Positions 31,307 through 55,198 of a stretch of DNA of 64,000 nt are shown here, in pieces (the stretch's first letter is position 1; each line of letters begins with the position of its first letter). Location: contig NC_132897.1 of NCBI RefSeq assembly GCF_030463535.1, positions 7,088,821-7,152,820 on the forward strand, given 5' to 3'. The DNA is from Salminus brasiliensis. Lineage: Eukaryota; Chordata; Actinopteri; Characiformes; Bryconidae. The notes under the pieces were generated by a model. It was not told the origin of the DNA. It saw nothing but the letters and a program-made list of their open reading frames with translations, and ran no database searches. A program made the position numbers and the translations under genes.

Positions 31307-31660
31307 ATGCAGAGGGGCAGCTCCTCCAATGGCTTGCTCCCTCTCTTACCTGAAACCCCGGCTGCTAGTGGTTTACTGTGGCTGTACTTTGCACTCAGAT
31401 GGCTTCCTGTAAATAAAACAGGGCTGGTGCTGCTTTCTAGATGACTGAAAGGAGACTAGATATGTGAGATCTCCCAGGACTAAGTTTACCACTCTCTCTT
31501 CTGAGTTATTCTGATGTTTTCCTGCTGTAGACGCTTCAGTAGACCATCTGGCCATGTCGGATGTAATGACTCTGCTCCCGCTGCCGGTGTGGATCTACGC
31601 TCTTCTTCAGAACTGGGTCTTTGGTTTGGTCTTGTGTAAGCTCTTATGTTACATGGTCAC
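31307..31660 (+). pseudogene. LTB4R-like receptor pseudogene 1 (N-terminal part)
   Basis: It starts at the ATG equivalent of the intact genes (MQRGSSSNGLLPLLPETPAA) and includes the TM1 region. A TAA follows the CACTCAGATGGCTTCC stretch, with a further in-frame TGA in the equivalent of RWLK. An extra stretch of roughly 80-90 bases separates TM1 from TM2. The TM2-TM3 segment (DVMTLLPLPVWIYALLQNWV then FGLVLCK) is well preserved up to about 31660. There the sequence switches to a Tc1 transposase remnant and the rest of the receptor is gone. The same lesions occur in pseudogene 2 at 38356, so inactivation predates the duplication. Confidence 0.85.
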
Positions 31661-31667
31661 TCTGGCT

Positions 31668-32075
31668 GAGCTCCATAGGAGAAACATCCAGAATGTCACT
31701 GCACACAATCACTGCAGTGCTCCTCCAGCCTGGGCTTTAATGACAGAGTGGCCAGACAGAAGCCTTCCTCAGTAAAAGACGCATGAAAGCCTGCCTGGAG
31801 TTTGAAGGCAAGAAGGCACACATTTCTCTGGTCTGATGAAACCAAGATTTTGGGCTCAGTTCTAAGCGTCATGTTCTGGAGGAAGCCAGGCTCTGCTCAT
31901 CACCTGCCCAATACCATCCCTACAGTGAAGCATAGTGTTTTTTCAGCATCTAGAACAGGGAGATGCAGGGTTGAGGGAAAGCCGAATGGAGCAAAGTTCA
32001 GAGATGTTCTTCATGAAAACCGGATCCAGAGCGCTCAGGAGGTCAGGCTGGTTCACCTTCCAACAAGATTGATGA
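31668..32075 (+). pseudogene. Tc1-like transposase remnant
   Basis: The translation contains LWSDETKI followed by KPGSAHHLPNTIPTVKH and a FRDVLHEN segment. This is the central part of a fish Tc1-family DDE transposase, including the first catalytic Asp in WSDET. Both ends are missing and there are frameshifts. It directly abuts the truncated receptor pseudogene 1, so its arrival or a later deletion probably removed the receptor's 3' part. Confidence 0.8.
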
Positions 32076-32551
32076 AATGTAATTGCTCTGAAAAGGGGCC
32101 GCACCACAACAAACATTTAAAAAATACTCTTTCGGCTTGGTGCAATTACACAGTCTCCCCAGAGAGGTTTCTAAATCCCCAAAACTTGCAGGCTGTCGCT
32201 TTAAGGTAAAAAGGCTACTTGATTTTTTTGTTGTCATTTTATTTATATATATATAAATAAGGACAGGACTTAAGGTCAGTTCTCATTAACCATGCAGAAG
32301 CACTGACGGGTTTATTAAGCAGCCTCTTAAAAAATTTTGGCATTTAGAACCTCCAACTTTTCACCTGTTTTTATTTTAATTTTTTATATAGAGTTGCTAC
32401 CCCTGCTTCAGGAAATGTTTTCAACTCTGCAGCTGCTTTTGTTTTCCAAACGGAAGCCACGATTACCATAACTCTTATCATTTTCCATCCGTTTTTATTT
32501 CAGCTGTAGCAACACTTCTAGTGACCACAGCTGCACAAACCTCACACAGCC

Positions 32552-33442
32552 ATGCAGCAGGACAGCAACTCTACTAACACCTCGCTCTCTGACTCACCTG
32601 CAAACCTGGCTGCCAGTAGTGTACTGGGGCTGTGCTTTGCACTGGGGGTCCCTGGAAACATAGCAGTGCTGGTGCTTCTTTCTAGATGGCTGAAGGGAGG
32701 CAGCTTCACCCCAAGGCTGTTGCTGAGCCTGGCCGTGTCCGATCTAATGGCTCTGCTCCTGCTGCCGGTGTGGATCTACGCTCTGCTTCACGACTGGGTC
32801 TTTGGTTTGGTCTTGTGTAAGATCCTCTCCTACATTGTCTACTGGAGCCTGTACTGCAGCGTGCTGTCTGTGACTTTACTGAGTGTGCAGAGATATGTCC
32901 AAGTGCTGCATCCTCAGAAATGGGCTAAGCTCCGAGAACACGGACTGAATGGCCTTGTGTGTGGGATCTGGATCCTGAGTGGAGTACTAGGCTGCTATGC
33001 ACTCATCCAGCGCCGTGTGAAGCTGGAGAAGGATGGGCGCTTGCATTGCAGAGCGCACTATCGGAATACTTCTGAGAGAGTGGCTACTTTGTCCTGGGAG
33101 ACCTTGGTGTTGTTTGTGTTTGCGTTCCCTGTCCTGGTTTATTTCTACGTCCGTCTTCATCGGGGTGTCAGCCAGTCAGCGTCCCTCAACACCCACAGGA
33201 TGACCAAGCTGGTGATCAGAATTGTGGCGACTTTCTTCATTTTTTGGCTCCCATATCATATCACCAACATTGTGCTGATCATTGCAGTGATACTCGGACA
33301 TGAACACGTTTTGAGGTTTGCAGAAGCTGGAAGTGATATTACGGGATCTCTAACGTTTATTAACAGCTGTGTGAATCCATTCATATATGCCTTCTCTGCT
33401 CGGGTTTTAAGGCAGCCCACATCTGGGACAGACACTGCTTAG
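32552..33442 (+). CDS. Leukotriene B4 receptor 1-like GPCR, copy A
   Basis: A complete 296-residue class A receptor with seven hydrophobic segments. Likely N-glycosylation sites are N6, N9 and, in ECL2, N172. TM1 has GVPGN (N36), TM2 LAVSD (D64), TM3 C89 paired with C166 of ECL2. The TM3 end is QRY (113-115) instead of D/ERY. TM6 has FWLPYH (W232, P234), as in mammalian BLT1, and TM7 NPFIY (275-279). The C-tail is only 17 residues, against about 60 in mammalian BLT1. BLT1-type receptors bind leukotriene B4 at the plasma membrane of leukocytes and couple to Gi/Gq; ligand here is inferred. A TTTCAG acceptor at 32498-32503 implies a 5' non-coding exon. AATAAA lies near 33723. The start is set by alignment with B-E. 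Confidence 0.85.
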   Translation: MQQDSNSTNTSLSDSPANLAASSVLGLCFALGVPGNIAVLVLLSRWLKGGSFTPRLLLSLAVSDLMALLLLPVWIYALLHDWVFGLVLCKILSYIVYWSLYCSVLSVTLLSVQRYVQVLHPQKWAKLREHGLNGLVCGIWILSGVLGCYALIQRRVKLEKDGRLHCRAHYRNTSERVATLSWETLVLFVFAFPVLVYFYVRLHRGVSQSASLNTHRMTKLVIRIVATFFIFWLPYHITNIVLIIAVILGHEHVLRFAEAGSDITGSLTFINSCVNPFIYAFSARVLRQPTSGTDTA

Positions 33443-33449
33443 GTCCTTA

Positions 33450-34140
33450 TGAAGTAGAAGCTTCTTAGGCAGTGATTTCTTGGTTTCAAAGATTTCTAAG
33501 ATTTCTTTTATTTTGTTTGATTGAATATGAGGTAAATGTGTTATTATATGTTGTATTTTTGCACTTATAAATACAGTAACTGTTGTGAATTGTCGCAATT
33601 AAAGTGCTTAATTGCATTTAATCACAACAATATTCTAAATAATTTTGATTAATCACAAGTTAGAATGCTAGCTAGCATGTCTTTAAATGTATGGGTGGGA
33701 GAACAAGTCCATGTTATTGCCTAATAAAGTGGCAAGAGGAATCAGGGTTTTTTTTTTATTATATCTCAGTGTAGTTTTGAAAAATTTAGCCTTGAACACG
33801 GTAACGCTCAGACACAGAAGCTTTAATACAGAAAAGGCTTCAACAACTTTTTTAAAGAGATAAATGGGTGGATCAGTCATTGGGCTGTGTGTATGTACGC
33901 ACACACTTCCTTAAGGGGTTCCACAGGGTTCAGTTTTAGGACATGACATTTTTTACGTCTATTTTGACAGTTTTGTTTAAACCGTAATGTTTCTGTGTCA
34001 CTGTCACACAAATGAAACTTGAATCTCTAAAATAACAAAAAATTAGAAAATGTAAAAAAAAGTACACAAGTTTCCTGCCGCAGCAGTTTGGGATGTTTTG
34101 GAGTGCTTTTAGACAACCTGAGCACAGTCAGTGCTAAGGT
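33450..34140. promoter_or_regulatory. 3' flank of receptor A with candidate polyadenylation signal
   Basis: The first 60 bases after the stop match the 3' flank of receptor B (GGTCCTTATGAAGTAGAAGC). AATAAA occurs at about 33723. The remainder is AT-rich with nothing recognised. Confidence 0.45.
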
Positions 34141-34373
34141 AAGCTAACTAGAGATCGACCAATAGGAGTTTTTTTCTATAACCGATGCCGATGGCTGATA
34201 TGCTTTGGTCAATGTCTAGTTTTCCACTTTATTTTCATGATAAAATGGCACAATTATAATAAATGGATGCAGAACATTTTTGAACTTAACATCATTTATT
34301 GAACACTGACTTGAACCATCTTTACAAATAAAAATTAATTAAACTGAAAAATATAAAAATAAAATAACACATA

Positions 34374-35984
34374 CACACGTGGACAAAATTCTTGGTACCC
34401 CTCGGTTAATGAAAGGAAAACCTACATTGGTCACAGAAATAACTTGAATCTGACAAAAGTAATAATAAATAAAAATTCTATGAAAATGAACAAATGAAAA
34501 TCCGACATTGATTTTGAACCATGCTTCAACAGAATTATTTTAAAAAAGTCATTAAACAGGCCTGGACAAAAATAATGGTACCACTGAAAATAATGTAATC
34601 AAAGGGAGATGTTAAAATCAAGGTGTGTCCACTAATTAGCATCACAGGTGTCTACAATCTTGTAATTAGTCAGTGGGCCTATATATACAGGGCTACAGGT
34701 AGTCACTGTGCTGTTTGGTGACATGGTGTGTACCATACTCAACATGGATCAGAGGAAGCAAAGGAAAGAGTTGGGTCAGGAGATTAGAAAGGAAATTGTA
34801 GACATGCATGTTAAATTTAAGAATATAAGACCATCTCCAAGCTGATTGATGCTTCTGTAACTACAGTTGCTCATATTATTTAGAAATTTAAGACCCATGT
34901 GACTGTAGCCAACCTCCCTGGACGTGGCCGCAGGAGGAAAATTGATGACAAATCAAAGAGACAGATAATACGAATGGTAACAAAAGAGCCCAGAAAAACT
35001 TGTAAAGAGATTAAAGGTGAACTTAAAGCTCAAGGAACATCAGTGTCAGATCGCACCATCCGTTGTTGTTTGAGCCAAAGTGGACTTCATTGAAGATCAC
35101 CATGGAGAACACCATTGTTGAAAACAGATCTTAAAAAAGCCAGACTGGAATTTGCCAAACTACATCTTGACAAGCCCCAAAGCTTCTGGGAGAATGTCCT
35201 ATGGACAGATTAGACAAAAACTGAACTTTTTGCCAAGGCACATCAGCTCTATGTTCACAGATGGAAAAATGAAACATATCAAGAAAAGAACACTGTCCCT
35301 ACTGTGAAACATGGAGGAGGCTCTGTTATGTTCTAGGGCTGCTTTGCTGCATCTGGCACAGGGTGTCTTGAATCTGTGCAGGGTGCAATGAAATCTCAAG
35401 ACTATCAAGGGATTCTAAGGAGAAATGTGCTGCCCAGTGTCAGAAAGCTTGGTCTCAGTCACAGGTCATGGGTCTTGCAACAGGAGAATGACCCAAAACA
35501 CAGCTAAAAACACCCAAGAATGGCTAAGAGGAAAACATTGGACTATTCTGAAGTGGCCTTCTATGAGCCCTGACCTAAATCCTATTGAGCAACTTTGGAA
35601 GGAGCTGAAACATGCCGTCTGGAAAAGACACCCTTCAAACCTGAGACAACTGGAGCAGTTTACTCATGAGGTGTGGGCCAGAATACCTGCTGAGAGGTGC
35701 AGAAGTCTCATTGACAGTTACAGGAATCGTTTGATTGCAGTGATTGCCTCAAAAGGTTGTGCAACAGAATATTAAGTTAAGGGTACCAGCATTTTTGTTC
35801 AGGCCTGTTTCATGAGTTTATTTTTTAGAATAGTTCTGTTGAAGCATAGTTCAAAATCAATGTCTGACTTTCATTGGTTAATTTTCATAGCATTTTTATT
35901 TATTATTACTTTTGTCAGATTAAAGTTATTTCTGTGACCATTTCATTAACCGAGGGGTTATACCAACAATTTTGTCCATGTGTG
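34374..35984 (+). mobile_element. Tc1-like transposon, degenerate
   Basis: The left terminus CACACGTGGACAAAATTCTT and the reverse complement of the right terminus CACACATGGACAAAATTGTT form inverted repeats that continue for about 70 bases (GGTACCCCTCGGTTAATGAA type). TA is duplicated at 34372-34373 and 35985-35986. Length about 1.6 kb, typical for Tc1. It carries a broken transposase. Confidence 0.9.
34745..35775 (+). pseudogene. Tc1-family DDE transposase pseudogene
   Basis: It starts MDQRKQRKELGQEIRKEIVD, then loses frame. The second helix-turn-helix part with the GRGRRRK hook motif is readable from 34899. The first catalytic Asp is in ENVLWTD, immediately followed by a stop codon. The second Asp is in NDPKH, and the Glu in [14 protein letters not shown] at about 35575. 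Stops and frameshifts make it non-functional. Confidence 0.85.
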
Positions 35985-36346
35985 TATAAAATAAAACAAT
36001 TCCTCAAGTAACCAACTGTAAATTAAAACATGAGTTGTAGTGCACTTGACCTAGCAACATCAGAAATCTCATTTAGCAAGTACAACAGCAGCATACCCCT
36101 CATTTCTGAGTGAAGGAAATGATGTAAACATTACAGAATGATATAAAAAGGAATGTGCTTTCATTTGAACTCAACTGCAGTCTGTGAGTCTTCCTCCCTC
36201 TACCCATCTTTCACGAATAACACAGGGCTGCCCGTAGACATGCCTGACTTTAAATCAGCGTTCCTACATACTGAGATCGGTCGATGCAGACACATTAAAA
36301 AGAGGCAAATATCGGCCCGATATATCAGTTGACCTCTAAAACTAAC

Positions 36347-36684: not shown

Positions 36685-36733
36685 CTGTAGCAACACTTCT
36701 AGTGACCACAGCTGCATTAAACTTCACACAGCC

Positions 36734-37624
36734 ATGCAGCAGGACAGCAACTCTACCAACTCCTCGCTCTCTGACTCACCTGCAAACCTGGCTGCCAGTA
36801 GTGTACTGGGGCTGTGCTTTGCACTGGGGGTCCCTGGAAACATAGCAGTGCTGGTGCTTCTTTCTAGATGGCTGAAGGGAGGCAGCTTCACCCCAAAGCT
36901 GTTGCTGAGCCTGGCCGTGTCCGATCTAATGGCTCTGCTCCTGCTGCCGGTGTGGATCTACGCTCTGCTTCACGACTGGGTCTTTGGTTTGGTCTGGTGT
37001 AAGATCCTCTCCTACATCGTCTACTGGAGCCTGTACTGCAGCGTGCTGTCTGTGACTTTACTGAGTGTGCAGAGATATGTCCAAGTGCTGCATCCTCAGA
37101 AATGGGCTAAGCTCAGAGAACACGGACTGAATGGCCTTGTGTGTGGGATCTGGATCCTGAGTGGAGTACTAGGCTGCTATGCACTCATCCAGCGCCGTGT
37201 GAAGCTGGAGAAGGATGGGCGCTTGCATTGCAGAGCGCACTATCGGAATACTTCTGAGAGAGTGGCTACTTTGTCCTGGGAGACCTTGGTGTTGTTTGTG
37301 TTTGCGTTCCCTGTCCTGGTTTATTTCTACGTCCGTCTTCATCGGGGTGTCAGCCAGTCAGCTTCCCTCAACACCCACAGGATGACCAAGCTGGTGATCA
37401 GAATTGTGGTGACTTTCTTCATTTTTTGGCTCCCATATCATATCACCAACATTTTGCTGATTATTTCAATATTACTCGGACATGAAAACGTTTTGAGGTT
37501 TGCAGAAGCTGGAAATAACATTATAGGATCTCTGACGTTCATTAACAGCTGTGTAAATCCATTCATATATGCCTTCTCTGCTCGGGTTTTAAGGCAGCCC
37601 ACATCTGGGACAGACACTGCTTAG
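36734..37624 (+). CDS. Leukotriene B4 receptor 1-like GPCR, copy B
   Basis: 296 residues, about 96% identical to copy A by eye. All landmarks are conserved: N6 and N9 glycosylation sites, N36, D64, C89/C166, QRY at 113-115, FWLPYH at 231-236, NPFIY at 275-279 and the 17-residue tail. Differences from A are few (R55K, L88W, A226V) and then cluster at 241-264 in TM6 and ECL3. The frame is open upstream to 36620. I choose the ATG at 36734 because it matches A and C, and a CTTCAG acceptor at 36679-36684 lies between the two ATGs. No pseudogene precedes this copy, unlike A and C. Ligand specificity is inferred from family resemblance. Confidence 0.85.
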   Translation: MQQDSNSTNSSLSDSPANLAASSVLGLCFALGVPGNIAVLVLLSRWLKGGSFTPKLLLSLAVSDLMALLLLPVWIYALLHDWVFGLVWCKILSYIVYWSLYCSVLSVTLLSVQRYVQVLHPQKWAKLREHGLNGLVCGIWILSGVLGCYALIQRRVKLEKDGRLHCRAHYRNTSERVATLSWETLVLFVFAFPVLVYFYVRLHRGVSQSASLNTHRMTKLVIRIVVTFFIFWLPYHITNILLIISILLGHENVLRFAEAGNNIIGSLTFINSCVNPFIYAFSARVLRQPTSGTDTA

Positions 37625-38200: not shown

Positions 38201-38355
38201 CAGCGTTGCTGTCTTGGCTTGCGGAAACTTGATCTTTGATACCAACACAAAAGCCACAGGAACCATCCGCCTGGTGGCATTTCTTCTTTCAGCATGTTCA
38301 GTTCTTGTAGCTTAGCTACGCCTCCCTTAACCACAGACATGTCTAGCCACAAACC

Positions 38356-38891
38356 ATGCAGAGGGGCAGCTCCTCCAATGGCTTGCTCCCTCTCTTACCT
38401 GAAACCCCGGCTGCTAGTGGTTTACTGTGGCTGTACTTTGCACTCAGATGGCTTCCTGTAAGTAGAACAGGGCTGATGCTGCTTTCTAGATGACTGAAAG
38501 GAGACTAGATATGTGAGATCTCCCAGGACTAAGTTTACCACTCTCTCTTCTTAGTTATTCTGATGTTTTCCTGCTGTAGACGCTTCAGTAGACCATCTGG
38601 CCGTGTCGAATGTAATGACTCTGCTCCCGCTGCCGGTGTGGATCTATGCTCTTCTTCAGAACTGGGTCTTTGGTTTGGTCTTGTGTAAGATCCTCTCCTA
38701 CGTGGCTTACCGGAGCCTCTACGACAGCAGGCTGCATGTGACTTTACCCCTCTGGCTTCAATGTGGTGTTAGTCAGCTTCCCTTCTCAAACACAGGATGT
38801 AGATGATGTTTCATGCTTCATGAATTCCTTAATGTACACCTTCTCTGCTGGGGCTCTAAGGCAGCACACACCTGGGACAGGCAGTGCTTAT
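38356..38891 (+). pseudogene. LTB4R-like receptor pseudogene 2
   Basis: Nearly identical to pseudogene 1 over TM1-TM3, with the same TAA and TGA lesions and the same extra stretch before TM2. It keeps a little more of TM3 (KILSYVAYRSLYDSRLHVTL). It then jumps directly to a GVSQ-like ICL3 remnant and, after stops, to a C-terminal TFSAGALRQHTPGTG-like end (38840-38890). TM4-TM6 are therefore deleted. It sits about 1.1 kb upstream of receptor C, just as pseudogene 1 sits upstream of receptor A. Confidence 0.85.
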
Positions 38892-38932
38892 GTTCTCCAT
38901 GGAGTACAAGTCTCTCAGCCAGTGATTTCTTT

Positions 38933-39163
38933 ATTTTAAAGCAGCATTACAGAGAATTGGTATTTCAGGAAGGAAGTGGGCTTTTGTGCTTTGAGCCAAT
39001 ACTCAGTGATTACAGTTTTTAGGGCCCCTCTCAGTCTTGGGCCCTTAGAATTGCCATAACGTCTCCCCCCTGATACGTGACCCCTGTCCCCTACAGGTCA
39101 GTGGAATATCACGATTCTAAAGCTGTTATTTTGAAGGAAAAATGCTATGTAATGTCACTTTAA
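38933..39163 (+). mobile_element. MITE family 2, copy 3
   Basis: TTTAAAGCAGCATTACAGAG at the left and the inverted TGCTATGTAATGTCACTTTA at the right match the termini of copies at 12993 and 25730. The interior is different. It lies between pseudogene 2 and receptor C. Confidence 0.6.
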
Positions 39164-39440: not shown

Positions 39441-40331
39441 ATGCAGCAGGACAGCAGCTCTACCAACACCTCGCTCTCTGACTCACCTGCAAACCTGGCT
39501 GCCAGTAGTGTACTGGGGCTGTGCTTTGCACTGGGGGTCCCTGGAAACATAGCAGTGCTGGTGCTTCTTTCTAGATGGCTGAAGGGAGGCAGCTTCACCC
39601 CAAAGCTGTTGCTGAGCCTGGCCGTGTCCGATCTAATGGCTCTGCTCCTGCTGCCGGTGTGGATCTACGCTCTGCTTCACGACTGGGTCTTTGGTTTGGT
39701 CTGGTGTAAGATCCTCTCCTACATTGTCTACTGGAGCCTGTACTGCAGCGTGCTGTCTGTGACTTTACTGAGTGTGCAGAGATATGTCCAAGTGCTGCAT
39801 CCTCAGAAATGGGCTAAGCTCCGAGAACACGGACTGAATGGCCTTGTGTGTGGGATCTGGATCCTGAGTGGAGTACTATGTTGCTATGCACTCATCCAGC
39901 GCCGTGTGAAGCTGGAGAAGGATGGACACTTTCGTTGCGGGGCGCACTATCGGAATATTTCTGAGATAGTGGCTACTTTGTCCTGGGAGACCTTGGTGTT
40001 GTTTGTGTTTGCGTTCCCTGTCCTGGTTTATTTCTACGTCCGTCTTCATCGGGGTGTCAGCCAGTCAGCGTCCCTCAACACCCACAGGATGACCAAGCTG
40101 GTGATCAGAATTGTGGCGACTTTCTTCATTTTTTGGCTCCCATATCATATCACCAACATTGTGCTGATTATTACAATATTACTCGGACATGAAAACGTTT
40201 TGAGGTTTGCAGAAGCTGGAAGGGAAATTACAGGATCTCTGGTGGTTATTAACAGCTGTGTGAATCCATTCATATATGCCTTCTCTGCTCGGGTTTTAAG
40301 GCAGTCCACATCTGGGACAGACACTGCTTAG
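39441..40331 (+). CDS. Leukotriene B4 receptor 1-like GPCR, copy C
   Basis: 296 residues with the same landmarks as A and B (N36, D64, C89/C166, QRY 113-115, FWLPYH, NPFIY, short tail). The N6 glycosylation site is lost (S6), while N9 and ECL2 N172 (N-I-S) remain. Of 19 differences from A, seven to eight fall in ECL2 and its edges (163-176, for example R163H, L164F, H165R, R167G, T173I, R176I). Most others fall in 245-269. G147 is Cys here. The ATG at 39441 is chosen by alignment; the open frame extends to 39375. A TTTTTAG acceptor ends at 39393. AATAAA occurs at 40795-40800. A (TTA)n tract at 39295-39320 precedes the gene. Confidence 0.85.
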   Translation: MQQDSSSTNTSLSDSPANLAASSVLGLCFALGVPGNIAVLVLLSRWLKGGSFTPKLLLSLAVSDLMALLLLPVWIYALLHDWVFGLVWCKILSYIVYWSLYCSVLSVTLLSVQRYVQVLHPQKWAKLREHGLNGLVCGIWILSGVLCCYALIQRRVKLEKDGHFRCGAHYRNISEIVATLSWETLVLFVFAFPVLVYFYVRLHRGVSQSASLNTHRMTKLVIRIVATFFIFWLPYHITNIVLIITILLGHENVLRFAEAGREITGSLVVINSCVNPFIYAFSARVLRQSTSGTDTA

Positions 40332-43930: not shown

Positions 43931-43934
43931 TTCT

Positions 43935-44000
43935 GCTCTGTTTAGCAGCAGCAAAATGATCAAGATGGTGACAAGAATTCTTGTGACATGCTTTATCGGC
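43935..44000 (+). pseudogene. LTB4R-like receptor relic 3 (ICL3-TM6)
   Basis: A 60-base island reads LFSSSKMIKMVTRILVTCFI, matching the FFSSSRMTKLVTRIVVVFFI segment of receptor D at the same codon spacing. Nothing else of the receptor is recognisable around it. It shows that the D/E-type array once extended leftward. Confidence 0.65.
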
Positions 44001-46077
44001 TGTCTGAGATCTCGTTGCCTACACCAGCATCGTTGCGAAGTTACAGCATAATCACATGTTAAGGGACCCGGTTGAACATGGTGTTGCAATAGCTTGAACG
44101 CATTCCCTCCTACAAAGCTGCAGTGTGTCAGTCTTGTGAAAGACAATGCTTAGATCAAGCATTGCAACATAGTGTGTGACAGTAAGACTTCCTCTGATAG
44201 GTAAAGCACGTTCCATCACCATCATTAATGCTTTGGTAAGACAGTAGAAATGGTCAGTTGGTGCTAATTTGAATTTGTGCTACTTCAGATCATGCCTTCA
44301 GTGTTTAATTTGAGAAGATCTTATTTAACTCTTGTCTTTTTATTTGGTTGGGAATATTTTTAAGTAAACCAGTAACCACAATTTTGTGCATTTTTGGTCT
44401 GCTAAGATTAGCATGCACATGCTCAATCATTTATTAAAGTGATATCAGTATATTCCAGTTTTTTCAGAATTCGTGGGAATATTTGTAGAACAAGAGAAAT
44501 CAGGTAAGCCTAGTTTTGCTGAGCAGACATTGGCTGCATAGAATTGTCGATGGCATTTCAGCAGTGAGAAGTTTGGGACCAAAATATCTGCTCTTTATTG
44601 AGGACAAATGTTCTGTGGCATAAAATGACCCCTATTATTATTATTTCATGTGACCCTGCCTGGTAAAGGACGCTAGCCTTGCCCTCAGAGCATTAAGATG
44701 CGAAGAGCCCTGGACATCATGAACATGGCTTGTTCATTAGCGATGCTGTTAAGGCCGGCGGCCAGCGTGGTAGCGATGTAGCCTCTGCAGTAGTGTTGCT
44801 TGGAGAGTTCGACACGAGTTGCCATGGCAACAATCCTGGGCAAGGCTGGTGGTCGATGCGGTAGCAATGCTAACGCCACAATAACGATGCTAATGTTGCA
44901 ATAACAATACTGTCAGTTTAGACCCGTTTTCATGCCTTTACTGTAAACATTGGAAACCCTCACAGAAACCACTGTGAAAACCACAGTAACAGTGTCTCTG
45001 CGCTGACATCGCATACCAGTGACCACATTAGCGTCTTGCTGTGACCACACCGACCAGTCATAACCTTAGCACCACCCACCTAATATTGAGTAGGTTCCTC
45101 TTTTGCAGTAACAGACCTGACTATTCAAAACATGCATGACTTCACAAGACCTCTGGAGTTCTGTGGCATCAGGAACCACCAAGACATCAGCAGCAGAAGC
45201 TTTAAGTCCTGTAAGTTGGGAGGAGGGGCCTTCATGCACCACATCAATGAGTCTTAGGTGCCCATTACTCTGTTGGCATTTCGACGGTTGTCTTTTCTTG
45301 GAGCACCTTTAGCACGTTCTGTCTGCTGCACACCAGAAAAGGATGTTTTGATGATATTCTGACCCAGCCGGCTACTCGTCACAGCTGACCCTTGTCAAAG
45401 TGTCTCAGATTCTTATGCTTATGCTTATTCTTATGCATTTTTTCTGCTTTTAACACCCATCCATTACAACATAGCTCTAACACTGTAACAACGACACCAT
45501 GACTATTCCTGAGTCTTACCAGACAGTGTTGCTGTCCTCTCGTTGTGTCCTTTCAGTGTGATGTGCTGATAGCAAGCTGAAGAGATTGTAGCCGGTTAGC
45601 TTTTAGCCTAGCTCCTACTCACGTCCCAGGGTTTGGCCTTCGTATTGGTCTTCCCAGTAAAAAAACGTAAGCCAGTTCTTTCCCCGCTGAGGTAGTTCAG
45701 TTTATTTTTCCGAGGGAGCAGATGATAAAGAGAAGAGATGGTAAAGCACCGCTTGCCTAGTGTTGTAGCCTTTAGCCTAGCGCGGTTCCCCATTTGCTCC
45801 CCCCAGCGCTCGTTTTGTCACACTGCAACAAATGGCAAAGGAAAAATCCTATAACTATCAGAGTCTGGAGGAGATGAGCTTCTCTTCAGTATCAGCCACT
45901 TTATCAGCGGCATTTTACAGTTTCACTTGCTCTGACTTGGTTTTCTCTAGGGGGCGGGGTTTATGTTAATTTTGGGAATGTAAATATAAGGAATTGTAAC
46001 AGTTTGGGAATTGGCCTGCTTTAGCAGCTTGGTTTTGGTTCTGCTGTATTTTCTTCTGAAGGCAGTAAAAGCAGAAG
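44001..46077. other. Gene-free region
   Basis: It includes a degenerate copy of dispersed family 5 at about 45050-45420 (CAGTCATAACCTTAGCACCA, CACCTAATATTGAGTAGGTT). No exons were recognised. Confidence 0.45.
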
Positions 46078-46278: not shown

Positions 46279-46282
46279 CATA

Positions 46283-47793
46283 CAGTGTGTGCAGAATTAT
46301 TAGGCAAGTTGTATTTGAGAGGATTCTTTTTATTATTGAACAACAACTATGTTCTCAATCAACCCAAAACACTTAATATTTATAAGCTTAATATTTTTGG
46401 AAGTTGGAGTGGGGTTTTTTAGATTTGGCTATCTTAGGAGGATATCTGTTTGCGCAGGTAACTATTACTGTGCAGAATTATTAGGCAACTTAATAAAAAA
46501 CAAATATATACCCATAATAAAATAATATAAACATAATATATACCCATCTCACTTGTTTATTTTCACCAGGTAAACCAATATAACACAAAATGTAGAAATA
46601 AACATTTCTGACATTCAAAAACAAAACCACAAACAAATCAGTGACCAATATAGCCACCTTATTTAACGATGACACTCAAAAGCCTTCCATCCATAGATTC
46701 TGTCAGTCGCTTGATCTGTTTACGATCAACATTGCATGCAGCAGACACCACAGCCTCCCAGACACTGTTCAGAGAGGTGTACTGTTTTCCCTCCCTGTAG
46801 ATCTCACATTTTATGAGGGACCACAGGTTCTCTATGGGGTTCAGATCAGGTGAACAAGGGGGCCATGTCATCACCCTTACTGGCCAGCCACGCTGTGGAG
46901 TATTCGGATGCATGTGGTGGAGCATTGTCCTGCATGAAAATCATGTTCTTCTTGAACGATACCGACTTCTTTCTGTACCACTGCTTGAAGGGGTCTTCCA
47001 GAAACTGGCAGTAGGTCTGGGAGTTGAGCTTCACTCCATCCTCAACCCGAAAAGGTCCCACAAGTTCATCTTGATGATACCAGCCCATACCAGTACCCCA
47101 CCTCCACCTTGCTGGCATCTGAGTCAGAGTGGAGCTCTCTGCCCTTTACTGATCCAGCCTCGGGCCCACCATAGAAAAATCAGTCTTAAGATATTTCTTG
47201 GCCCAGTCTTGACGTTATATCTTATGTTTCTTGTTCAAAGGTGGTAATTTTTCAGCCTTCCTTACCTTGGCCATGTCCCTGAGTATCGCACAACTTGTGC
47301 TTTTTGATACTCCAGTAACGTTGCAGCTCTGAAATATGGCAAAACTGGTGGCAAATGGCATCTTGGCAGCTTCACGCTTGATTTTCCTCAATTCATGGGC
47401 AGTTATTTTGTGCCTTTTTTTTTCAACACGTTTCTTTGCCATGAAACGCTTGATTGTTCGGTGATCACGCTTTAAAAGTTAGGCAATTTCAAGACTGCTG
47501 CATCCCTCTGCAAGACATCTCACAATTTTTGACTTTTCAGAGTCCGTCAAATCTCTCTTCTGACCCATTTAGCCAAAGGAAAGAAAGTTGCCTAATAATT
47601 AAGCACACCTTATATAGGGTGTTGATGTCATTAGACCACACCCCTTCTCATTACAGAGATGCACATCACCTGATTTACTTGATTGGTAGTTGGCTTTCAA
47701 GCCTATAGAGCTTGGAGTAGGACAACATGTATAAAAAGGATGATGTGATCAAAATACTTAACTAATAATTGCCAAATAATTCTGCACACAGTG
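46283..47793 (-). mobile_element. Tc1/mariner-family transposon, degenerate (transposase on minus strand)
   Basis: The left terminus CAGTGTGTGCAGAATTATTA and the inverted right terminus CACTGTGTGCAGAATTATT are flanked by TA at 46281-46282 and 47794-47795. Length about 1.5 kb. It lies directly next to the SINE at 46078-46278 and about 340 bases upstream of receptor D. Confidence 0.9.
46659..47568 (-). pseudogene. Tc1/mariner DDE transposase pseudogene
   Basis: From an ATG at 47568 (MGQKRDLTDSEKSKIV) there is an early stop. Then come the KRHKITAHELRKIKREAAK region and the PFATSF..VTGVSKST helix-turn-helix-like segment. The catalytic domain follows with MQDNAPPHAS (second Asp) and [14 protein letters not shown] (Glu). 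Frames are interrupted at about 47215 and 46900, so it is inactive. Confidence 0.85.
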
Positions 47794-48128
47794 TACATAC
47801 AAATACAGTTTGGCATCCAAGTCATCTAAAAGGCCAAAACATACACAAAAGGTTTTTCAAAGTATCCAGTCACGATAGATTATTACAGACAGATAATGAT
47901 TTAAAGGCTAAAGCAGCAGGTCTGAAATTGGACATCTGATCTTACTGATGGCTGAGCATTGAGGAAAGTGGTGAAAAATGTGCTCTTACTTTTGCATATG
48001 TAAACTAAACTCATCCTAGCATTGCCGCTCGCTTCGACTTTGCATATAAACACCAGAATACCTGTTACCTGTCTCTGTTTATATTCATCCGGCATTGTCC
48101 TCTTCAGCTCTGCTGCCAGCCCTACACC

Positions 48129-49034
48129 ATGCAGCGGGACAACTGCTCCAATGGTTCACAATTCAGCGAGGCCCTTCCAATATACAAAGCCAGCAGTGCT
48201 GTGTTGGGTCTGTGCTTTGTGCTGGGGGTCCCTGGAAATATAGTCGTGCTGGGGATGCTCGTCCGACGCGTGAAGGAGAACAGCTTCACCACTTGTCTGC
48301 TGCTGAGCCTGGCGGTGTCTGATCTGCTGAGTCTCCTTCCACTGCCGGTGTGGATCTGGGCTTACCTGCATGGTTGGATCTTTGGCTCTGCTGCGTGCAG
48401 GATCATCTCCTACATTGAATACTGGTGCCTCTACTGTAGCGCACTGTGTGTGACCCTGATGAGCATTCAGAGGTACATGCAGGTGCTGCATCCTCAGAAG
48501 TGGGCTAAACTTGGAGACAGAGGACGGAAGGGTCTTTTGGCTGGGATATGGATCCTGAGTGGACTTTTGGGCTTACATGCGCCTGCCAAACGTCGAGTAG
48601 GTTGTAAACCGAACGGACTCCAGGACTGTGGTCAACAATTTAGGAATGATGAGGAGAGAGTAGCCATTTTGCTCTTGGAAATATTGCTGTTTGTGATCTG
48701 CTGCTCCTTGCTGGTTTTCTTCTACTGTCGTCTTCACAGAGGGGTTAACCAGTCACCGTTCTTTAGCAGCAGCAGAATGACGAAGCTGGTGACGAGGATC
48801 GTGGTGGTGTTCTTCATTGTATGTGTCTTGGTTCCGATTGCCAACATGTTGATTATTATTATGGTGTTTCACAATAATCTCACTAGTCTGACTGTACCTG
48901 CAAACCATTTACTCAAAATATCTAGAGCTCTGACTTTTCTGAACAGCTGTGTGAACCCATTTCTCTACACATTCTCGTTTAGTGAGCTGCGGTGTCCCTG
49001 TGCTGCGACAGAGGACACAAACAGATCAGATTAG
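48129..49034 (+). CDS. Leukotriene B4 receptor-like GPCR, copy D (divergent subgroup)
   Basis: 301 residues, roughly half identical to A-C, closest to E. N5 and N8 are likely glycosylated. Landmarks are GVPGN (N37), LAVSD (D65), C90, QRY (114-116) and NPFLY in TM7. ECL2 has two cysteines (VGCKPNGLQDC). TM6 lacks the usual Trp and Pro: where A has FWLP, D has VCVL, with a Pro two residues later (VP). An N-L-T sequon lies in ECL3. The tail is short and Cys-containing (ELRCPC). A CTTCAG acceptor at 48102-48107 predicts a 5' non-coding exon. AATAAA is at 49206-49211. Membership of the BLT1-like group is clear; ligand is not. Confidence 0.8.
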   Translation: MQRDNCSNGSQFSEALPIYKASSAVLGLCFVLGVPGNIVVLGMLVRRVKENSFTTCLLLSLAVSDLLSLLPLPVWIWAYLHGWIFGSAACRIISYIEYWCLYCSALCVTLMSIQRYMQVLHPQKWAKLGDRGRKGLLAGIWILSGLLGLHAPAKRRVGCKPNGLQDCGQQFRNDEERVAILLLEILLFVICCSLLVFFYCRLHRGVNQSPFFSSSRMTKLVTRIVVVFFIVCVLVPIANMLIIIMVFHNNLTSLTVPANHLLKISRALTFLNSCVNPFLYTFSFSELRCPCAATEDTNRSD

Positions 49035-50925
49035 GGACCCGGTCTGTTTTTTTTTACTTCCCGATTCAGATCCTGTCTTTGTGTATCTGTACATAATACA
49101 GTCCAACAGAAGGTAAGACACAGTGTCTATAATCAGACTAAATTCTAATCTGATTGACTTTGTTTGGAGGATAAAAAATGATAAAGGAGACTTTATCATT
49201 GTGTGAATAAATACAATTATAGAATTTAATTTTTTTAATTAAATTGTAGAAATGAATTAAATTAATTGAAAAAGTAGCAGAAATGTGATCACAATATAAA
49301 AGGAGTGTAACAGCATGAATGAACTTGGACTGATACCTGTTGTTGTTGGTCTACCAAGGTGTAATAACTGGTTATAGTGAGTGAATGTGTGAATTTCTGT
49401 AGCGTGTGTGTATTAGCATTAGCGTTAGCCTCCACTCGGTTCTGAATGTGCTCTTGAGTGACTGAAATTCCTTTATTTACCTTCTGAAGCGTCTGCACTG
49501 CTGCCAGCTGGGTAATAATGTTCTTCACACTGCTCTGAACACTGTGGTTAAATACACAGTGGAGTTAAAATGGCCGATACCCGATCCATTAATGTCTGGA
49601 TCAGGACTTCCCTGTTAAAAATGCTTGAGCAGTTATAAAGTCATATCTAGTTTGTGTCATTTCAATCATTTAATGAAATGTATTTAATATGTGTGCCAGT
49701 GTTCTGCTCAGCTCGGTTAACTGTAATTTAAACTGCATCAATCTGCAAACAGTTCTAATAAACATGTGAGCTAGTGATGTCAATGTCATCTTCACTTTTG
49801 GATAGGCAAATTGATATAGTGGCAGCAAACACAGACACCACTGCGTCCAAAGTAAACCTCAGGAAGAGTGCCTCTCTACTCTCTCTACTGTGCTCTCACA
49901 TACCAGCGACATCAGCATCTCACTATGACTGTGTAGCAGGATTACCAATATTCCCTCACCTGCTTTCGCACGCATATGAACCTGAGTGACGTCCCATTCT
50001 TAATCCATAGGGTTTAATATGATGTTGGGCCACCCTCTGCAGCTACAACAGCTTTAACTCTTCTGGGAAGGCTTATTAATTATTATTATTATTATTAATA
50101 TTATCATTACCTCCTGCTCATATAATTTTGACGGCTTCAATGCATAGCTCATGTATTTGCGACCTTCTCTATAAAGGTCATAGGTAAGTAAAAAGTGAAG
50201 AATACCATTTTTACATTGGCATATCTTGACCACAGAATCCACAGGATCCTCATCTATAAAAGATGACCTAATTTCGTAATGAATTGTTAAGAGCTAATGT
50301 AATGTCTCCTTCCTAACAGACTCTCTTAATTCTTATTAAACAAGAAAACTACCCTTGTGTTTCCGCTGTTGGGCAGCATCCACTTTTTTTTGTTTGTTTT
50401 TTTTACTGTTATACAGTCTCAGACTAATATGTACGGGTCAAAAAGTCACCTGTATGCAGTTTTAAATCATAGAGAAGCTGGTTTGCATTAGTGTTCTTAG
50501 CAGGATAACAGTCTGTTCACCACTGAACTAATTCAAGTCTGGCCGACAGGAAACCTGCTTATAAATATAGGAGAATGACTCCAGTGACTGGTGACTAATG
50601 ACCGAGCGACTGCTGTTGAAAGGACAGAGAGCTAAATGTTAACTTTTTTCTTGTGGGTTTGGATCTGCACTTATGAAGCTAGTCTTTATCTAGTTAACTA
50701 CTTTATCCAGCTCGGTGCAGCTGCTGTTGACTAACTGCTGAGCTACCCACACAACTGTTATACCGCCCAACCCTAAATCACCCCTAAATCACTATAAAAA
50801 ATGCTGTTAGGTGACTGCTCACTTTCATTCACTGTTTGCAGCATTAGCGTTTGCAGCATTAACCGATCCAATGCTTTAGACCCTGTAGGCCACACGTCTT
50901 CACTTTCAGAACAATCATCAGTGTC
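49035..50925. other. Gene-free region right of receptor D
   Basis: AATAAA at 49206 and about 49756 may end the receptor D transcript. A (TTA)n tract lies at about 50077-50100. No other gene recognised. Confidence 0.45.
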
Positions 50926-51275
50926 ATGATGCAGAGAAAGTAGCCACTCCAGTATCTGAAGTATTTCTGTTCTTGACGTGTTTCGTCCTGCTGGTGTACT
51001 TCTACTACAGTCTTCACCGAGGGGGTGACGAGTCACCTTTCTTTAGCAGCAACAGAATGACGAAGCTGGTGATGATAATCGTTGTGGCTTTTTTTGTTTT
51101 CGGTGTGACAGTCACTATTGCTAACGTCTTAATTAGAAATACATGCTGTCTTTAACTGCAGATCTTGGTGGCAAAATATCTAATCTAATCTAAACAGCTG
51201 TGTGAACCCTTTTCTGTACACATTATCTTTTAGACAGAAGCAGCGTTGCCGTACTGTCACAGACTTCAGCCAGAC
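50926..51275 (+). pseudogene. LTB4R-like receptor pseudogene 4 (C-terminal half only)
   Basis: Similarity to receptor E starts abruptly at ATGATGCAGAGAAA (end of ECL2). It covers TM5 (VLLVYFYYSLHRGGDE), ICL3 SPFFSSNRMTKLV, TM6 and, after stops and a small deletion, TM7 (NSCVNPFLYT in broken frame) to about 51260. The N-terminal half is absent upstream. It lacks W6.48, like D and E. Confidence 0.85.
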
Positions 51276-51369
51276 TACACTTTCTTGGTATATTAAAAAA
51301 TATCACTGGTCCGAAATAACTCTGGTGTCTGGGGTTCTGTTTTCATTGCAAAACCACTGAAATGAACTG

Positions 51370-51600
51370 AAGTGTGTAGCATTGATTGTCTTGTTACAAT
51401 GGCACCTGTCAAGAGGTGGGATATATTAGGCAGCAAATAAGCAGTTCTTGAAGTTGATGTGTTGAAAGCAGGAAAAATGCAAAGGGGTACAGATTTGGCC
51501 AAAAGTGCTCCAAGAAAGGAAAACCACTAAACCAGCAACAGGGCCAGGGGTGCCCAAGCCTCACTGATGCTCGTATGGAGCAAAGGCTAGCTTGCAGAAT
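51370..51600 (+). repeat. Dispersed repeat family 5, degenerate copy
   Basis: GGCCAAAAGTGCTCCAAGAAAGG and CCCAAGCCTCACTGATGCTCG match the 25190-25640 family. Confidence 0.5.
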
Positions 51601-51624
51601 AGCTATAGCGGCAAAAAACACTTG

Positions 51625-51717
51625 GGCAAGACTCCTAACACTACATTGGCCCACCTCTGTGATACAAGTAAGTCGCTCTGGATAAGAGCATCAGCTAAAT
51701 GCCATAAATGTAAATGT
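51625..51717 (+). mobile_element. SINE 3' part with LINE-type tail
   Basis: GCAAGACTCCTAACACTACA then AAGTCGCTCTGGATAAGAGC and a TAAATGTAAATG end, as in the SINE at 46078-46278 and the LINE at 30317-31199. Confidence 0.7.
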
Positions 51718-51719
51718 AG

Positions 51720-52480
51720 ATGTGAACAGAGAGTATTGGCAAGAAGATTATCCTATAGTTTAGTTGAGCTATATATTTATATAATTAAAAAAAAAAAAAT
51801 GAAATTATGGAGGATATTTTTTCTTCAAATGCATTTTGCATTTATTTAACTTTAAAATGCTGATCATTTCACTGATGACTTTTGTCCACTTTATCAGATG
51901 TAGTGCAAAGTGTACATACAATATGGTTTTACTGTTACTAAGGATGAACTTTACAAATATGTAACCCCTAAGTTTCTATGTGGCCCCTTAGTTTAATTAT
52001 ATTAATAATTCAACAGGTTCTAAATGCTTCAGAGGCTGCAGGAATTAAGCTAATGATGAATTACACAAAGGTCAAATCAGACTAAATTCAAAGTAAACAA
52101 AACGTGCGTTGCATCCACCTACTTAGTCTTAGCTTGTTTTTTGTTGTTCTTTGTTTTTATTTTATTTTTGAGTTAATGACATGTCTATTACTTTGGCAGC
52201 TCTCTTTTGGAAAGAATTGCTTAATTACACCAAGTCCTCCCTGATGAAGGTTAGCTAAAACTGGAATTCACAATATGATCAACCCACAGCTGTGCACCTC
52301 TATGACCCCAGAGAGATGGCACTTCTTAAAATATGTCTGGTAATGACCATTAAACATTAGTACATGTGGAATTGTTCAGTTTAGCATCAAATGGTTTTGC
52401 ATATGCAAACCAGCTCTAATGCATAAACAGCACTGCTATCAGTGTTCTGACTATCCTCACAGAAACGGGAACCCTGGCTT
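51720..52480. other. Gene-free region between the two receptor half-pseudogenes
   Basis: AT-rich. Towards 52440-52538 it becomes similar to the 5' flanks of pseudogene 6 and receptor E. No gene recognised. Confidence 0.45.
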
Positions 52481-52538
52481 TTCTCTCCATTCTGCATTGT
52501 TCATCCTGAACAGTCACTTCAGCTTCTAACCCTAAGCA

Positions 52539-52890
52539 ATGCAGAAAGTCAACTGTTCAAGCAGTTGCCAGCTCACCGGTGACTTTCCAGTGTCCATAAC
52601 CAACAGCACTGGTTTATGCTTGGGGTTCCTGGTAACATAGCAGTGCTGGGGATGCTCGTCCGACGCTTGAAGGAAAAACACTCTGTTGTTTGCAAAATCA
52701 TCTCCCACTGAGTCTGATGAGCTTTTAGAAGTACATGCAGGTGCTACATCCTCAGAAGTGGGCTAAACTTGGAGGACGAAAGGGTCTTTTTGGTGGGATA
52801 TGGATCCTGAGTGGACTGTTTACATTATATGCTCTCGTTCAGCATGACGTTGGATACGATCGATATGGATTTCAGTACTGTTACCAGTAA
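52539..52890 (+). pseudogene. LTB4R-like receptor pseudogene 5 (N-terminal half only)
   Basis: It starts with ATG (MQKVNCSSSCQLTGDF-like) and shows TM1 with the GVPGN-equivalent. TM2 is mostly deleted. TM3 is truncated, with a stop in SHxVxxS. It then reads ICL2 YMQVLHPQKWAKLG, TM4 GIWILSGLF and ECL2 GYDRYGFQYCYQ. Similarity stops at 52887-52891, within about 12 bases of the position where pseudogene 4 begins on the receptor E map. Confidence 0.85.
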
Positions 52891-52954
52891 TAAAATTATT
52901 TTTTTATTTTCATTCTCTAATCACAGTCTGTTCATAATAGCTGACTTTTGTCAA

Positions 52955-53050
52955 GGCTTTAAGGATTCAAGGAGACTTTATTGTCATTCGCATCACATGT
53001 CGTACATGGGGTGGAACGAAATTGAGATCTCAAGGTCCCAGTTAGGTGGA
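52955..53050 (-). repeat. Dispersed LINE/SINE-type tail
   Basis: GGGGTGGAACGAAATTGAGA and TCAAGGTCCCAGTTA are the reverse complement of 43610-43705. Confidence 0.6.
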
Positions 53051-53264
53051 GTTTAGAGGTGAAATGAAGCCTGAAGTTTCTTAGTCTGTTCGTTTTACAC
53101 TTAATGCTCCGCAGCCTCCTGCCTGAGAGGAGCAGTTCAACTTCAGTGTCTCAAGTAAACTAATTAAAAAAAATCATAAAATCTTACATTTACCACCCTG
53201 TTACATTGTCTTTATTTCATGCCAATGTAAAAAAAAAAAGAAAAAAAGGCAGATATGACCAATG

Positions 53265-53580
53265 ACTAGGTACAGGTAGACCAACAGTGGCAATGAGAGG
53301 GTGGGACGCAAGCAGATTGACCAGTGGTTGATGTAGATGCAGGTATAGGTAGACCAACAGTTACGGTGAGAGGGTGGGACGCAAGCAGATTGACCAGTGG
53401 TTGATGTAGATGCAGGTATAGGTAGACCAACAGTTACGGTGAGAGGGTGGGACGCAAGCAGATTGATGCAGATGCAGGTACATGTAGACCAACAGTGGCG
53501 GTGAGAGGGTGGAATGCAAGCAGATTGACCAATGGTTGATGCAGATACAGATACATGTACACCAATAGTGGCGGTAAAGA
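53265..53580. repeat. 73-bp minisatellite, about four copies
   Basis: The segment GTGGGACGCAAGCAGATTGA recurs at 53301, 53374 and 53447 (spacing exactly 73). A variant follows at 53509 after an 11-base loss. The Cys/His/Ser-rich reverse frames across it are repeat artefacts. Confidence 0.9.
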
Positions 53581-53855
53581 TCTGCGCACAGCATGTGTGG
53601 CGACTGCAGAAGCGAACGCTGCTGTGAAACCAATGTGAAATCCAAGACATTTTCACAATTTAACAATCTTGATAGGATACATTTTTCACATCCCAAAAAG
53701 AAGACAGGTTTGGGAAAAGGTAGTAATAGTAGGCTAATAGGCTAAACCTTCGTGATGAGCAACCCTTTACTCTGGTATTCTAGCATTAATACAGTCACAG
53801 GAACCCTGACCCTGTTCATCTGTTTATCTGTACGGTCACATCAGCTTCTAGCCCT

Positions 53856-54100
53856 AAACCATACAGGAGTTCCCAGTTCCCAGTTCTTTGTTCTGGGGGA
53901 CCCTGAAAATCTATTCGGCCTTGGGATTCTTGTCTGATGCTTGAGGGAGAACAGCTTGACCACTAGATCAATGCTCAGCCTGGTGGTGTCAGACCTGCTT
54001 AATGTTCTAAATCATACAAAATCATTTCACACACTGATCTACTGTTCGCATCAACCATTTCAAAGGCACTGGTGCCTCCACCTGTATTACCTACTGTATT
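53856..54100 (+). pseudogene. LTB4R-like receptor pseudogene 6 (N-terminal fragment)
   Basis: The 5' flank CAGCTTCTAGCCCTAAACCAT matches that of pseudogene 5. The body shows a degraded GVPGN region (LGDPENLFGLGILV), a stop, then RENSLTTRSMLSLVVSDLLN equivalent to ICL1-TM2. A CACTGGTGCCTCC remnant of TM3 follows near 54068. The rest is missing; intact receptor E begins about 200 bases later. Confidence 0.75.
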
Positions 54101-54307
54101 CCTGGAATTGCTACTTTACATGGCTTATGAAGCCGTCAGTAGTCTTCCATTAGGTTTTGTGTGGTGCTCACTTTCACTTTTGCATATGCAAAACATGAGC
54201 TTCATAACATAGATGGTAATGAATGCCCTGACAGTGCATCCTGCATTGTTCTCCTCAGCTGTGCTGGTAGCAGCCAAGCACCAACATCAGCTCCTGACTC
54301 CTGCACC

Positions 54308-55198
54308 ATGCGTGAGGTCAACTGCTCCAGCAGTTCCCAGCTCACAGATGCCTTTCCAGTATGCGTAGCCAGCAGTGCTGTGATGGGACTTTCCTTCGGT
54401 TTGGGGTTTTTTGGTAACGCAGCAGTGCTGTGGGTTCTTGTCCGACGCTCGAAGGAGAACAGCTTCACCCTCGGACTGATGCTGAGCCTGGCGGTGTCTG
54501 ATCTGCTGACTCTCCTTCCACTGCCGTTGTGGATCTGGGCTATTCTGCATGACTGGACCTTTGGCTCTGTTTTGTGCAAGAGCATCTCCTACGTGGAATA
54601 CTGGTGCATCTACTGTAGCACGTTATGTGTGAGTCTGATGAGCTTTCAGAGGTACATGCAGGTGCTGCATCCTGAGAAATGGGCTAAACTTGGAGACCGA
54701 GGACAGAAAGGTCTTTTGGCTGGGATATGGATCCTGAGTGGAGTGTTGGCGTCCTACGCTCCAGTCCAGCGTGAAGTAGGATGTGAACTGTATGGATTCC
54801 AGTACTGTTACCAGCAATTTAGGAATGATGCAGAGAAAATCGTTACTTTAGTTTTGGAAATGCTGCAGTTTGTGATCTGCTTCTTCTTGCTGGCTTACTT
54901 CTACTGTCGTCTTCACCGAGGGGTCAATGAGTCCCCTTTCTTTAGCAGCAACAGAATGACGAAGCTGGTGACGAGAATCGTTTTGGCGTTCTTCATGTTT
55001 TACGTGGCCGTTCCCATTGTTAACGTCATGATTATCGTTGCGGTGTCGCTGCAGAATGAAAGTCTTCTGGAAAGATTCGAACTTGCTGGCAAAATGGCCA
55101 GAGCTCTGACATTTCTGAACAGCTGTGTGAACCCTTTTCTCTACACGTTCTCTTTCAGAGGGCTGCAGGTTAGCAGTCTTTCCACTGTGGACACTTAG
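54308..55198 (+). CDS. Leukotriene B4 receptor-like GPCR, copy E (divergent subgroup)
   Basis: 296 residues from the ATG that aligns with D (MREVNCSSSSQLTDAFPVCV). The frame is open from 54161, but an in-between CTCCTCAG acceptor (ending 54258) and paralogue alignment favour 54308. Landmarks: GFFGN (N37), LAVSD, C90, QRY, NPFLY. ECL2 has VGCELYGFQYC. TM6 has MFYVAVP: Tyr replaces the switch Trp, Ala replaces its Pro, and Pro is shifted by two, as in D. An N-E-S sequon lies in ECL3. The tail is short and Ser/Thr-rich (SSLSTVDT). Probably a surface receptor of myeloid-type cells by family; the ligand is unproven. It is the last intact member in the window. Confidence 0.8.
   Translation: MREVNCSSSSQLTDAFPVCVASSAVMGLSFGLGFFGNAAVLWVLVRRSKENSFTLGLMLSLAVSDLLTLLPLPLWIWAILHDWTFGSVLCKSISYVEYWCIYCSTLCVSLMSFQRYMQVLHPEKWAKLGDRGQKGLLAGIWILSGVLASYAPVQREVGCELYGFQYCYQQFRNDAEKIVTLVLEMLQFVICFFLLAYFYCRLHRGVNESPFFSSNRMTKLVTRIVLAFFMFYVAVPIVNVMIIVAVSLQNESLLERFELAGKMARALTFLNSCVNPFLYTFSFRGLQVSSLSTVDT

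What the first reader, a model, noticed from the sequence alone, without database searches (positions are those of the whole stretch)
31307..55198. Birth-and-death tandem array of leukotriene B4 receptor-like GPCRs
Five intact single-coding-exon receptors and at least six broken copies lie on one strand in 24 kb. Mammals have one BLT1 and one BLT2 gene. The array shows two sequence subgroups (A-C and D-E), each with its own pseudogenes, so expansion happened in at least two rounds. This may be a lineage-specific inflammatory lipid receptor expansion.
Basis: partly seen in the sequence, partly recalled or inferred. Interest (0 to 1): 0.75.

Follow-up and report, generated by a model that had tools for sequence, protein, structure and literature searches.

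The report
Fish array of leukotriene-receptor-like genes
A fish chromosome carries a row of five intact and about six broken genes for cell-surface receptors related to, but distinct from, the leukotriene B4 inflammation receptors of mammals, and three of the intact copies have stayed almost identical except where the receptor would meet its ligand.

Summary
In detail: five intact single-coding-exon class A GPCRs (A-E) and six relic regions lie on the + strand between 31.3 and 55.2 kb, in two subgroups, each with its own relics. The family call is partly right. A-E sit inside a leukotriene-receptor-like clade (100/99) but not inside BLT1 or BLT2. The same genome has a Blt1-like and two Blt2-like genes elsewhere that group with human BLT1/BLT2 (100/98). 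The array joins five other BLT-like genes in a sister lineage (91/75, not starred). New here: exons A-C are 95-97% identical from the splice acceptor to about 40 bp past the stop, while the adjoining intron is 76-80% identical where it aligns. ECL2 (in C) and TM6 top-ECL3-TM7 diverge by 11-14% against about 1% in the core. This fits exon-limited gene conversion that spares the ligand-entry region, with selection on loops as a partial alternative. Ligand, expression and taxonomic spread are untested.

The parts
31300..31658 (+). Relic P1 (A-C type, codons 1 to about 96). A UnaL2 LINE 3' end lies just upstream. The stretch after it reads to me like a Tc1-type transposon (recalled; Pfam found no match in ORF 31787-32206)
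32504..33490 (+). Near-identical exon block of A: from the inferred splice acceptor to 48 bp past the stop (A-C comparison)
32552..33442 (+). Receptor A, 296 aa
33269..33361 (+). A: divergent segment, codons 240-270 (TM6 top-ECL3-TM7)
36734..37624 (+). Receptor B, 296 aa
37451..37543 (+). B: divergent segment, codons 240-270
38305..38945 (+). Relic P2 (A-C type, codons 1-109 then C-terminus, internal deletion); 100, 97 and 96% identical to P1 in the three 100-base bins 31300-31599
39441..40331 (+). Receptor C, 296 aa
39876..39968 (+). C: divergent segment, codons 146-176 (ECL2)
40158..40250 (+). C: divergent segment, codons 240-270
43932..44183 (+). Relic P3 (D-E type, weak)
48129..49034 (+). 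Receptor D, 301 aa; lacks W6.48 and P6.50
50925..51266 (+). Relic P4 (D-E type, C-terminal half, in-frame stops)
52511..52892 (+). Relic P5 (D-E type, codons 1-60 and 100-169, in-frame stops)
53882..54114 (+). Relic P6 (D-E type, codons 29-101)
54308..55198 (+). Receptor E, 296 aa; lacks W6.48 and P6.50

Best explanation
A tandem array of receptors from a BLT-like GPCR lineage that is related to, but separate from, the canonical LTB4 receptors BLT1 and BLT2. Shown: five intact genes, six relic regions, two subgroups, BLT-clade membership, and exons A-C far more alike than their flanks, with two divergent segments. Inferred: the copies arose by old tandem duplication and loss; gene conversion keeps the A-C exon nearly uniform; selection, or conversion stopping there, keeps ECL2 and TM6 top-ECL3-TM7 different. 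Inferred further: the products are membrane receptors for small oxidised lipids, with pockets tuned differently per copy, probably on leukocytes, and with little C-terminal regulation.
For: Best solved relative is human BLT1 (five-row profile 134 bits; next other family, apelin receptor, 111.5). Clade of array plus BLTs 100/99, canonical BLT1/BLT2 100/98, array 100/98; BLT clade 100/99 without the five unverified recalled rows. E at human BLT1 position 185 is present in 16 of 16 clade rows and 1 of 22 others; N6.55 in 15 of 16 and 2 of 22. R4.64, the predicted anchor of the LTB4 carboxyl group (PMC8137929 and PMC4349892, passages), is kept in all five. Exon A-B 97.3% over 986 bp, A-C 95.5% over 995, B-C 95.7% over 984, beginning within 8 bp of the acceptor site. 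Adjoining intron: 113/142, 156/200 and 102/135 identical in the best local alignments, each score above the highest of 200 shuffles. 234 core codons have 4 amino-acid changes in each pair; the 31 codons 240-270 have 8, 8 and 7 (p 5e-6, 5e-6, 4e-5). Clustering, width 105: 0, 0 and 18 of 5000 permutations as dense (A-B, A-C, B-C). Two dead copies, P1 and P2, are 96-100% identical over 300 bp amid unlike sequence, so selection on the protein is not needed for such likeness. D-E dN/dS 0.48.
Against: Human BLT1 as query scores C3aR (135) and SSTR3 (126 bits) above the array (B 116, A 111, C 106, E 97, D 87). H3.29, critical for LTB4 in human BLT1 (PMC8137929, passage), is S in all five; G3.33 is Y; 7.39 is G or R, so high-affinity LTB4 binding is unlikely. 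D and E lack W6.48, P6.50 and Y6.51 and may not signal normally. The synonymous excess in codons 240-270 is seen in A-B (p 0.027) and A-C (0.0025) but not in B-C (0 of 24). With width 60 the A-C cluster is weaker (124 of 5000). The segments were chosen after seeing the data. Codons 240-270 also change fast in D-E and the C29b pair, so fast change there may be a family trait. No expression data.
Confidence: 0.7

Rival explanations
1. Ordinary lineage-specific duplication of BLT1 or BLT2: the array is extra copies of a canonical LTB4 receptor.
For: Best PDB match is BLT1 for A, E and the profile; Q3.49 as in human BLT2 (recalled sequence).
Against: A Blt1-like and two Blt2-like genes exist elsewhere and group with human BLT1/2 at 100/98, excluding the array; array plus fish Blt2 rejected, p-AU 0.0004; array plus BLT1 p 0.015 and array plus BLT2 p 0.042 in the small tree.
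Confidence: 0.12
2. A-C are recent exon-sized duplicates, with flanks replaced by transposons, and no gene conversion.
For: Transposon remnants lie between copies.
Against: The introns next to the exon are homologous but 20-24% diverged where they align, and divergence inside the exon is clustered.
Confidence: 0.15
3. The divergent segments are positive selection alone on evenly young copies.
For: B-C: 7 amino-acid changes and 0 synonymous in codons 240-270; the same segment is fast in D-E and in the C29b pair (amino-acid change p 0.004 and 0.005).
Against: A-C have 3 of 23 synonymous changes there against 1 of 230 in the core, A-B 3 of 23 against 5 of 230; introns are far more diverged than exons.
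Confidence: 0.25
4. Assembly artefact: several copies are false duplicates of one locus.
For: High exon identity of A-C.
Against: Flanks of A, B and C are unlike each other over most of their length, and D and E are only 65% identical in protein.
Confidence: 0.03

Closest known systems
Canonical LTB4 receptors BLT1/BLT2 (zebrafish Blt1, Blt2a, Blt2b; PMC4349892)
   Same: Same clade 100/99; R4.64, E185, N6.55 and Y3.37 kept in all five
   Different: Separate group; coding region in one open frame, where this fish's canonical genes align in three pieces; S3.29, Y3.33; R7.35 in all 6 canonical rows (human BLT2 recalled) but only in C of the array; 17-21 residues after NPxxY
C29b pair, C13 gene and C29a pair of the same genome (C29:26.24-26.26 Mb, C13:16.82 Mb, C29:16.74 Mb)
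   Same: BLT-like genes, 28-42% identical to A, D or E
   Different: Pairs or a single gene, not an array
Gene-conversion mosaics in tandem opsins (recalled)
   Same: Homogenised exons with functional segments kept different
   Different: Lipid-receptor-like genes, whole coding exon in one block
FPR-rs and TAAR-type single-exon receptor arrays (recalled)
   Same: Intronless GPCRs with birth and death in tandem
   Different: FPR1 falls in another clade; no olfactory evidence here

Membership tests
Class A GPCR | 7tm_1 domain, D2.50, R3.50, NPxxY | tested here: met
   but D3.49 is Q in all five and W6.48/P6.50 are lost in D and E
LTB4 receptor (BLT) clade in the wide sense | Monophyly with BLT1/BLT2 against other chemoattractant and peptide receptors | tested here: met
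   100/99; 86/90, not starred, in the 15-row tree
BLT1 or BLT2 proper | Nested inside the canonical BLT1 or BLT2 group | tested here: not met
   canonical group 100/98 without the array
BLT1 | LTB4 contacts H94, Y102, R156, E185, N241 (PMC4349892, passage) | tested here: not met
   4 of 5 kept in all five receptors; H94 is S
BLT2 | Y102, R156, E185, N241 kept, H94 not (PMC4349892, passage) | tested here: met
   a residue pattern only, not placement in the tree
BLT receptor | Response to LTB4 or 12-HHT | not testable with these tools
   needs expression and assay

The most novel reading that the evidence does not exclude
A third, non-BLT1/BLT2 branch of leukotriene-type receptors has become a rapidly turning over sensor set in this fish, with gene conversion keeping the signalling body uniform while the ligand-entry loops diversify, so that each copy reads a different oxylipin, possibly including external cues such as pheromonal or microbial lipids.
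Probability: 0.2. Interest if true: 0.75.

Novelty: new variant of a known kind. Interest (0 to 1): 0.5.

Why it matters
Mammals are described with two LTB4 receptors and zebrafish with three (PMC4349892, passages). This genome has at least 13 BLT-clade genes: 3 canonical and 10 in the sister lineage. If that lineage is functional, fish lipid-mediator signalling is richer than the mammalian model suggests, names such as 'leukotriene B4 receptor 1-like' may mislead, and the loop-specific divergence points to the residues (7.35 and 7.36 among them) to test first.

Tried and rejected
AlphaFold model of A from the five window proteins: mean pLDDT 55, not used, no fold search run. Flanking genes: 20 chosen stop-free ORFs against Pfam gave two ORFs with transposase matches (one just under the family's cut-off) and one weak match at E 0.069, no neighbour gene; most short exons were not examined, so synteny is open. 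CIDE-N as a landmark of the BLT locus: 8 matches, none near a BLT-like gene. Rfam: one match, a LINE 3' element. Viral-contig scan with the array alignment: no relative. Nine literature searches showed, in listings of at most 20 papers each, none on a tandem array or a third lineage of BLT-like genes; some hit lists were far longer than what was shown (1,572 papers). I saw passages of six papers (PMC4349892, also part 1 of 5 of its text; PMC8137929; PMC10637354; PMC2556351; PMC9059464; PMC10974277). Considered and dropped: that position 7.39, a BLT1/BLT2 selectivity site, varies among A-C; with the numbering put right it is G in all three.
Full report
Observation. The window holds five intact ATG-to-stop ORFs of 296-301 aa on the + strand, all rhodopsin-type GPCRs. 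tblastn and nhmmer with these copies find six relic regions, all + strand, between 31.3 and 54.1 kb. P1 and P2 belong with A-C, P3-P6 with D-E (profile scores). P3 is the weakest (E 3.7e-14 with the D-E profile, tblastn 0.002 at best). Beyond these, nhmmer listed only a 50-bp piece beside P2 (E 0.0026-0.0048) and a minus-strand match at 31467-31515 (E 0.0095). In the whole genome (1,066,335,885 bases, 103 contigs; the window is C20:7088821-7152820) the listed matches outside the window reach 42% identity to A at most and 38% to E, so no further copy of either subgroup was seen; the tool scores only its best candidates.

Family. The best solved relative is human BLT1 for A, E and the five-row profile; B, C and D were not searched singly. 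The margin is small for A (112.4 against 105.8 bits for AT1R) and larger for the profile (134 against 111.5). The reverse search is less favourable: human BLT1 scores C3aR and SSTR3 above the array. A first tree of 15 rows gave array plus BLT at 86/90, without rejecting grouping with AT1R, chemokine receptors or SSTR2 (p-AU 0.126, 0.109, 0.154). The own genome settled it. The next best matches to A are two genes at C29:26.24-26.26 Mb (42 and 41%), two at C29:16.74 Mb (35 and 32%) and one at C13:16.82 Mb (36%), then a drop to 31% and 109 bits. With these five and 15 other own-genome GPCRs the BLT-like set is one clade at 100/99, also without the five unverified recalled sequences.

Canonical genes. 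Human BLT1 as query raised gene pieces at C28:17.742 Mb (55% over TM1-TM4), C28:17.7256 Mb and C9:41.62 Mb. Each gene aligns in three pieces. The first has H at 3.29 and D at 3.49 as in BLT1; the other two have F and H. I read them as a Blt1 and two Blt2 genes; zebrafish has blt1 and blt2a on one chromosome and blt2b on another (PMC4349892, passages). In the 38-row tree these three and the mammalian BLTs form one group (100/98). The array, C29b and C13 form another (100/98), which joins C29a at 91/75, not starred. So the array is BLT-like but not BLT1 or BLT2.

Homogenised exon. A-B, A-C and B-C match at 97.3, 95.5 and 95.7% over 984-995 bp. The match starts within 8 bp of an inferred AG acceptor, which lies 46-49 bp before the ATG, and ends 37-48 bp past the stop. 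Beyond it the 5' intron is homologous but diverged: best local alignments 113/142 (A-B), 156/200 (A-C) and 102/135 (B-C), scores 85, 132 and 76 against maxima of 43, 40 and 42 in 200 shuffles each. The next 500 bp downstream rise above shuffles only for A-B. Further upstream, A and C alone share 486 of 530 bases, which is the stretch that holds P1 and P2. Inside the exon the 234 core codons have 4 amino-acid changes in every pair; codons 240-270 have 8, 8 and 7; codons 146-176 have 0, 7 and 7 (A-B, A-C, B-C). Permutations as dense as observed, of 5000: width 105, 0, 0 and 18; width 60, 0, 124 and 1. The segments were chosen after seeing the data. Synonymous changes are in excess in codons 240-270 for A-B and A-C, not B-C. 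P1 and P2, both dead, are 96-100% identical over 300 bp amid unlike sequence. Gene conversion of exon patches explains these together; selection must be added for the loops, or conversion must stop there.

Pocket. R4.64, E185, N6.55 and Y3.37 are kept in all five; H3.29 is S and G3.33 is Y. In human BLT1, H94F and R156K lowered LTB4 potency about 28- and 40-fold (PMC8137929, passages). The three codons with three different residues in A, B and C are 245 (A/S/T), 261 (S/N/R) and 262 (D/N/E). 261 and 262 align with 7.35 and 7.36. 7.36 is N268 of human BLT1, which one of the published docking poses links to the 5-hydroxyl of LTB4. 7.35 corresponds to R270 of human BLT2, named in 12-HHT docking (PMC10637354, passages), if 7.39 is T274 as PMC8137929 states. 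R7.35 is present in all 6 canonical rows, human BLT2 being recalled. D and E lack W6.48, P6.50 and Y6.51 yet have dN/dS 0.48 between them, so they do not look like long-dead genes, but ordinary activation is doubtful. Only 17-21 residues follow NPxxY; helix 8 is reported as needed for BLT2 to pass ER quality control (PMC10637354, passages), so trafficking is a question.

Function. Inference only: G-protein signalling, Gi or Gq type as for BLT1/BLT2, to an oxidised lipid on leukocytes. A carp gene named leukotriene B4 receptor 1-like rose strongly in leukocytes after koi herpesvirus infection (log2 9.24, PMC10974277, passages), and leukotriene B4 receptor 2 is listed in goldfish olfactory epithelium (PMC2556351, passages); neither was matched to this lineage.

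Noticed in passing
G000 C20:31.126-31.284 Mb (L017-L020, L024): Another GPCR cluster on the same chromosome: 13 matches to receptor A within 160 kb; the five read fall with FPR1, C3aR and C5aR1 in the tree.
   Followed up: partly
G000 C18:34.09-34.18 Mb: A run of ten class A GPCR matches within 85 kb.
   Followed up: no
window 31138-31191: UnaL2 LINE 3' element directly upstream of relic P1.
   Followed up: no
window 35419-35772 (+), 46662-46940 (-): DDE_3 transposase remnants between the receptor copies; the second scores just under the family cut-off.
   Followed up: no
window 58602-59989 and 60244-60605: Degenerate satellite with TTAGGG-like units, periods 23, 29 and 52.
   Followed up: no
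window 6269-7129: Minisatellite with nested periods from 11 to 197 bases.
   Followed up: no
L015 (C29:16.74 Mb): C29a_2 has its TM7 piece some 600-750 bases downstream of the first ORF, near where the canonical genes also break, while its neighbour C29a_1 is one open frame: stepwise intron loss in the BLT-like lineage is possible.
   Followed up: partly
BLT clade, position 3.49: The D of DRY is Q, H or E in 13 of 16 clade rows, D only in BLT1-type rows; 1 of 22 other rows departs (human BLT2 recalled).
   Followed up: partly
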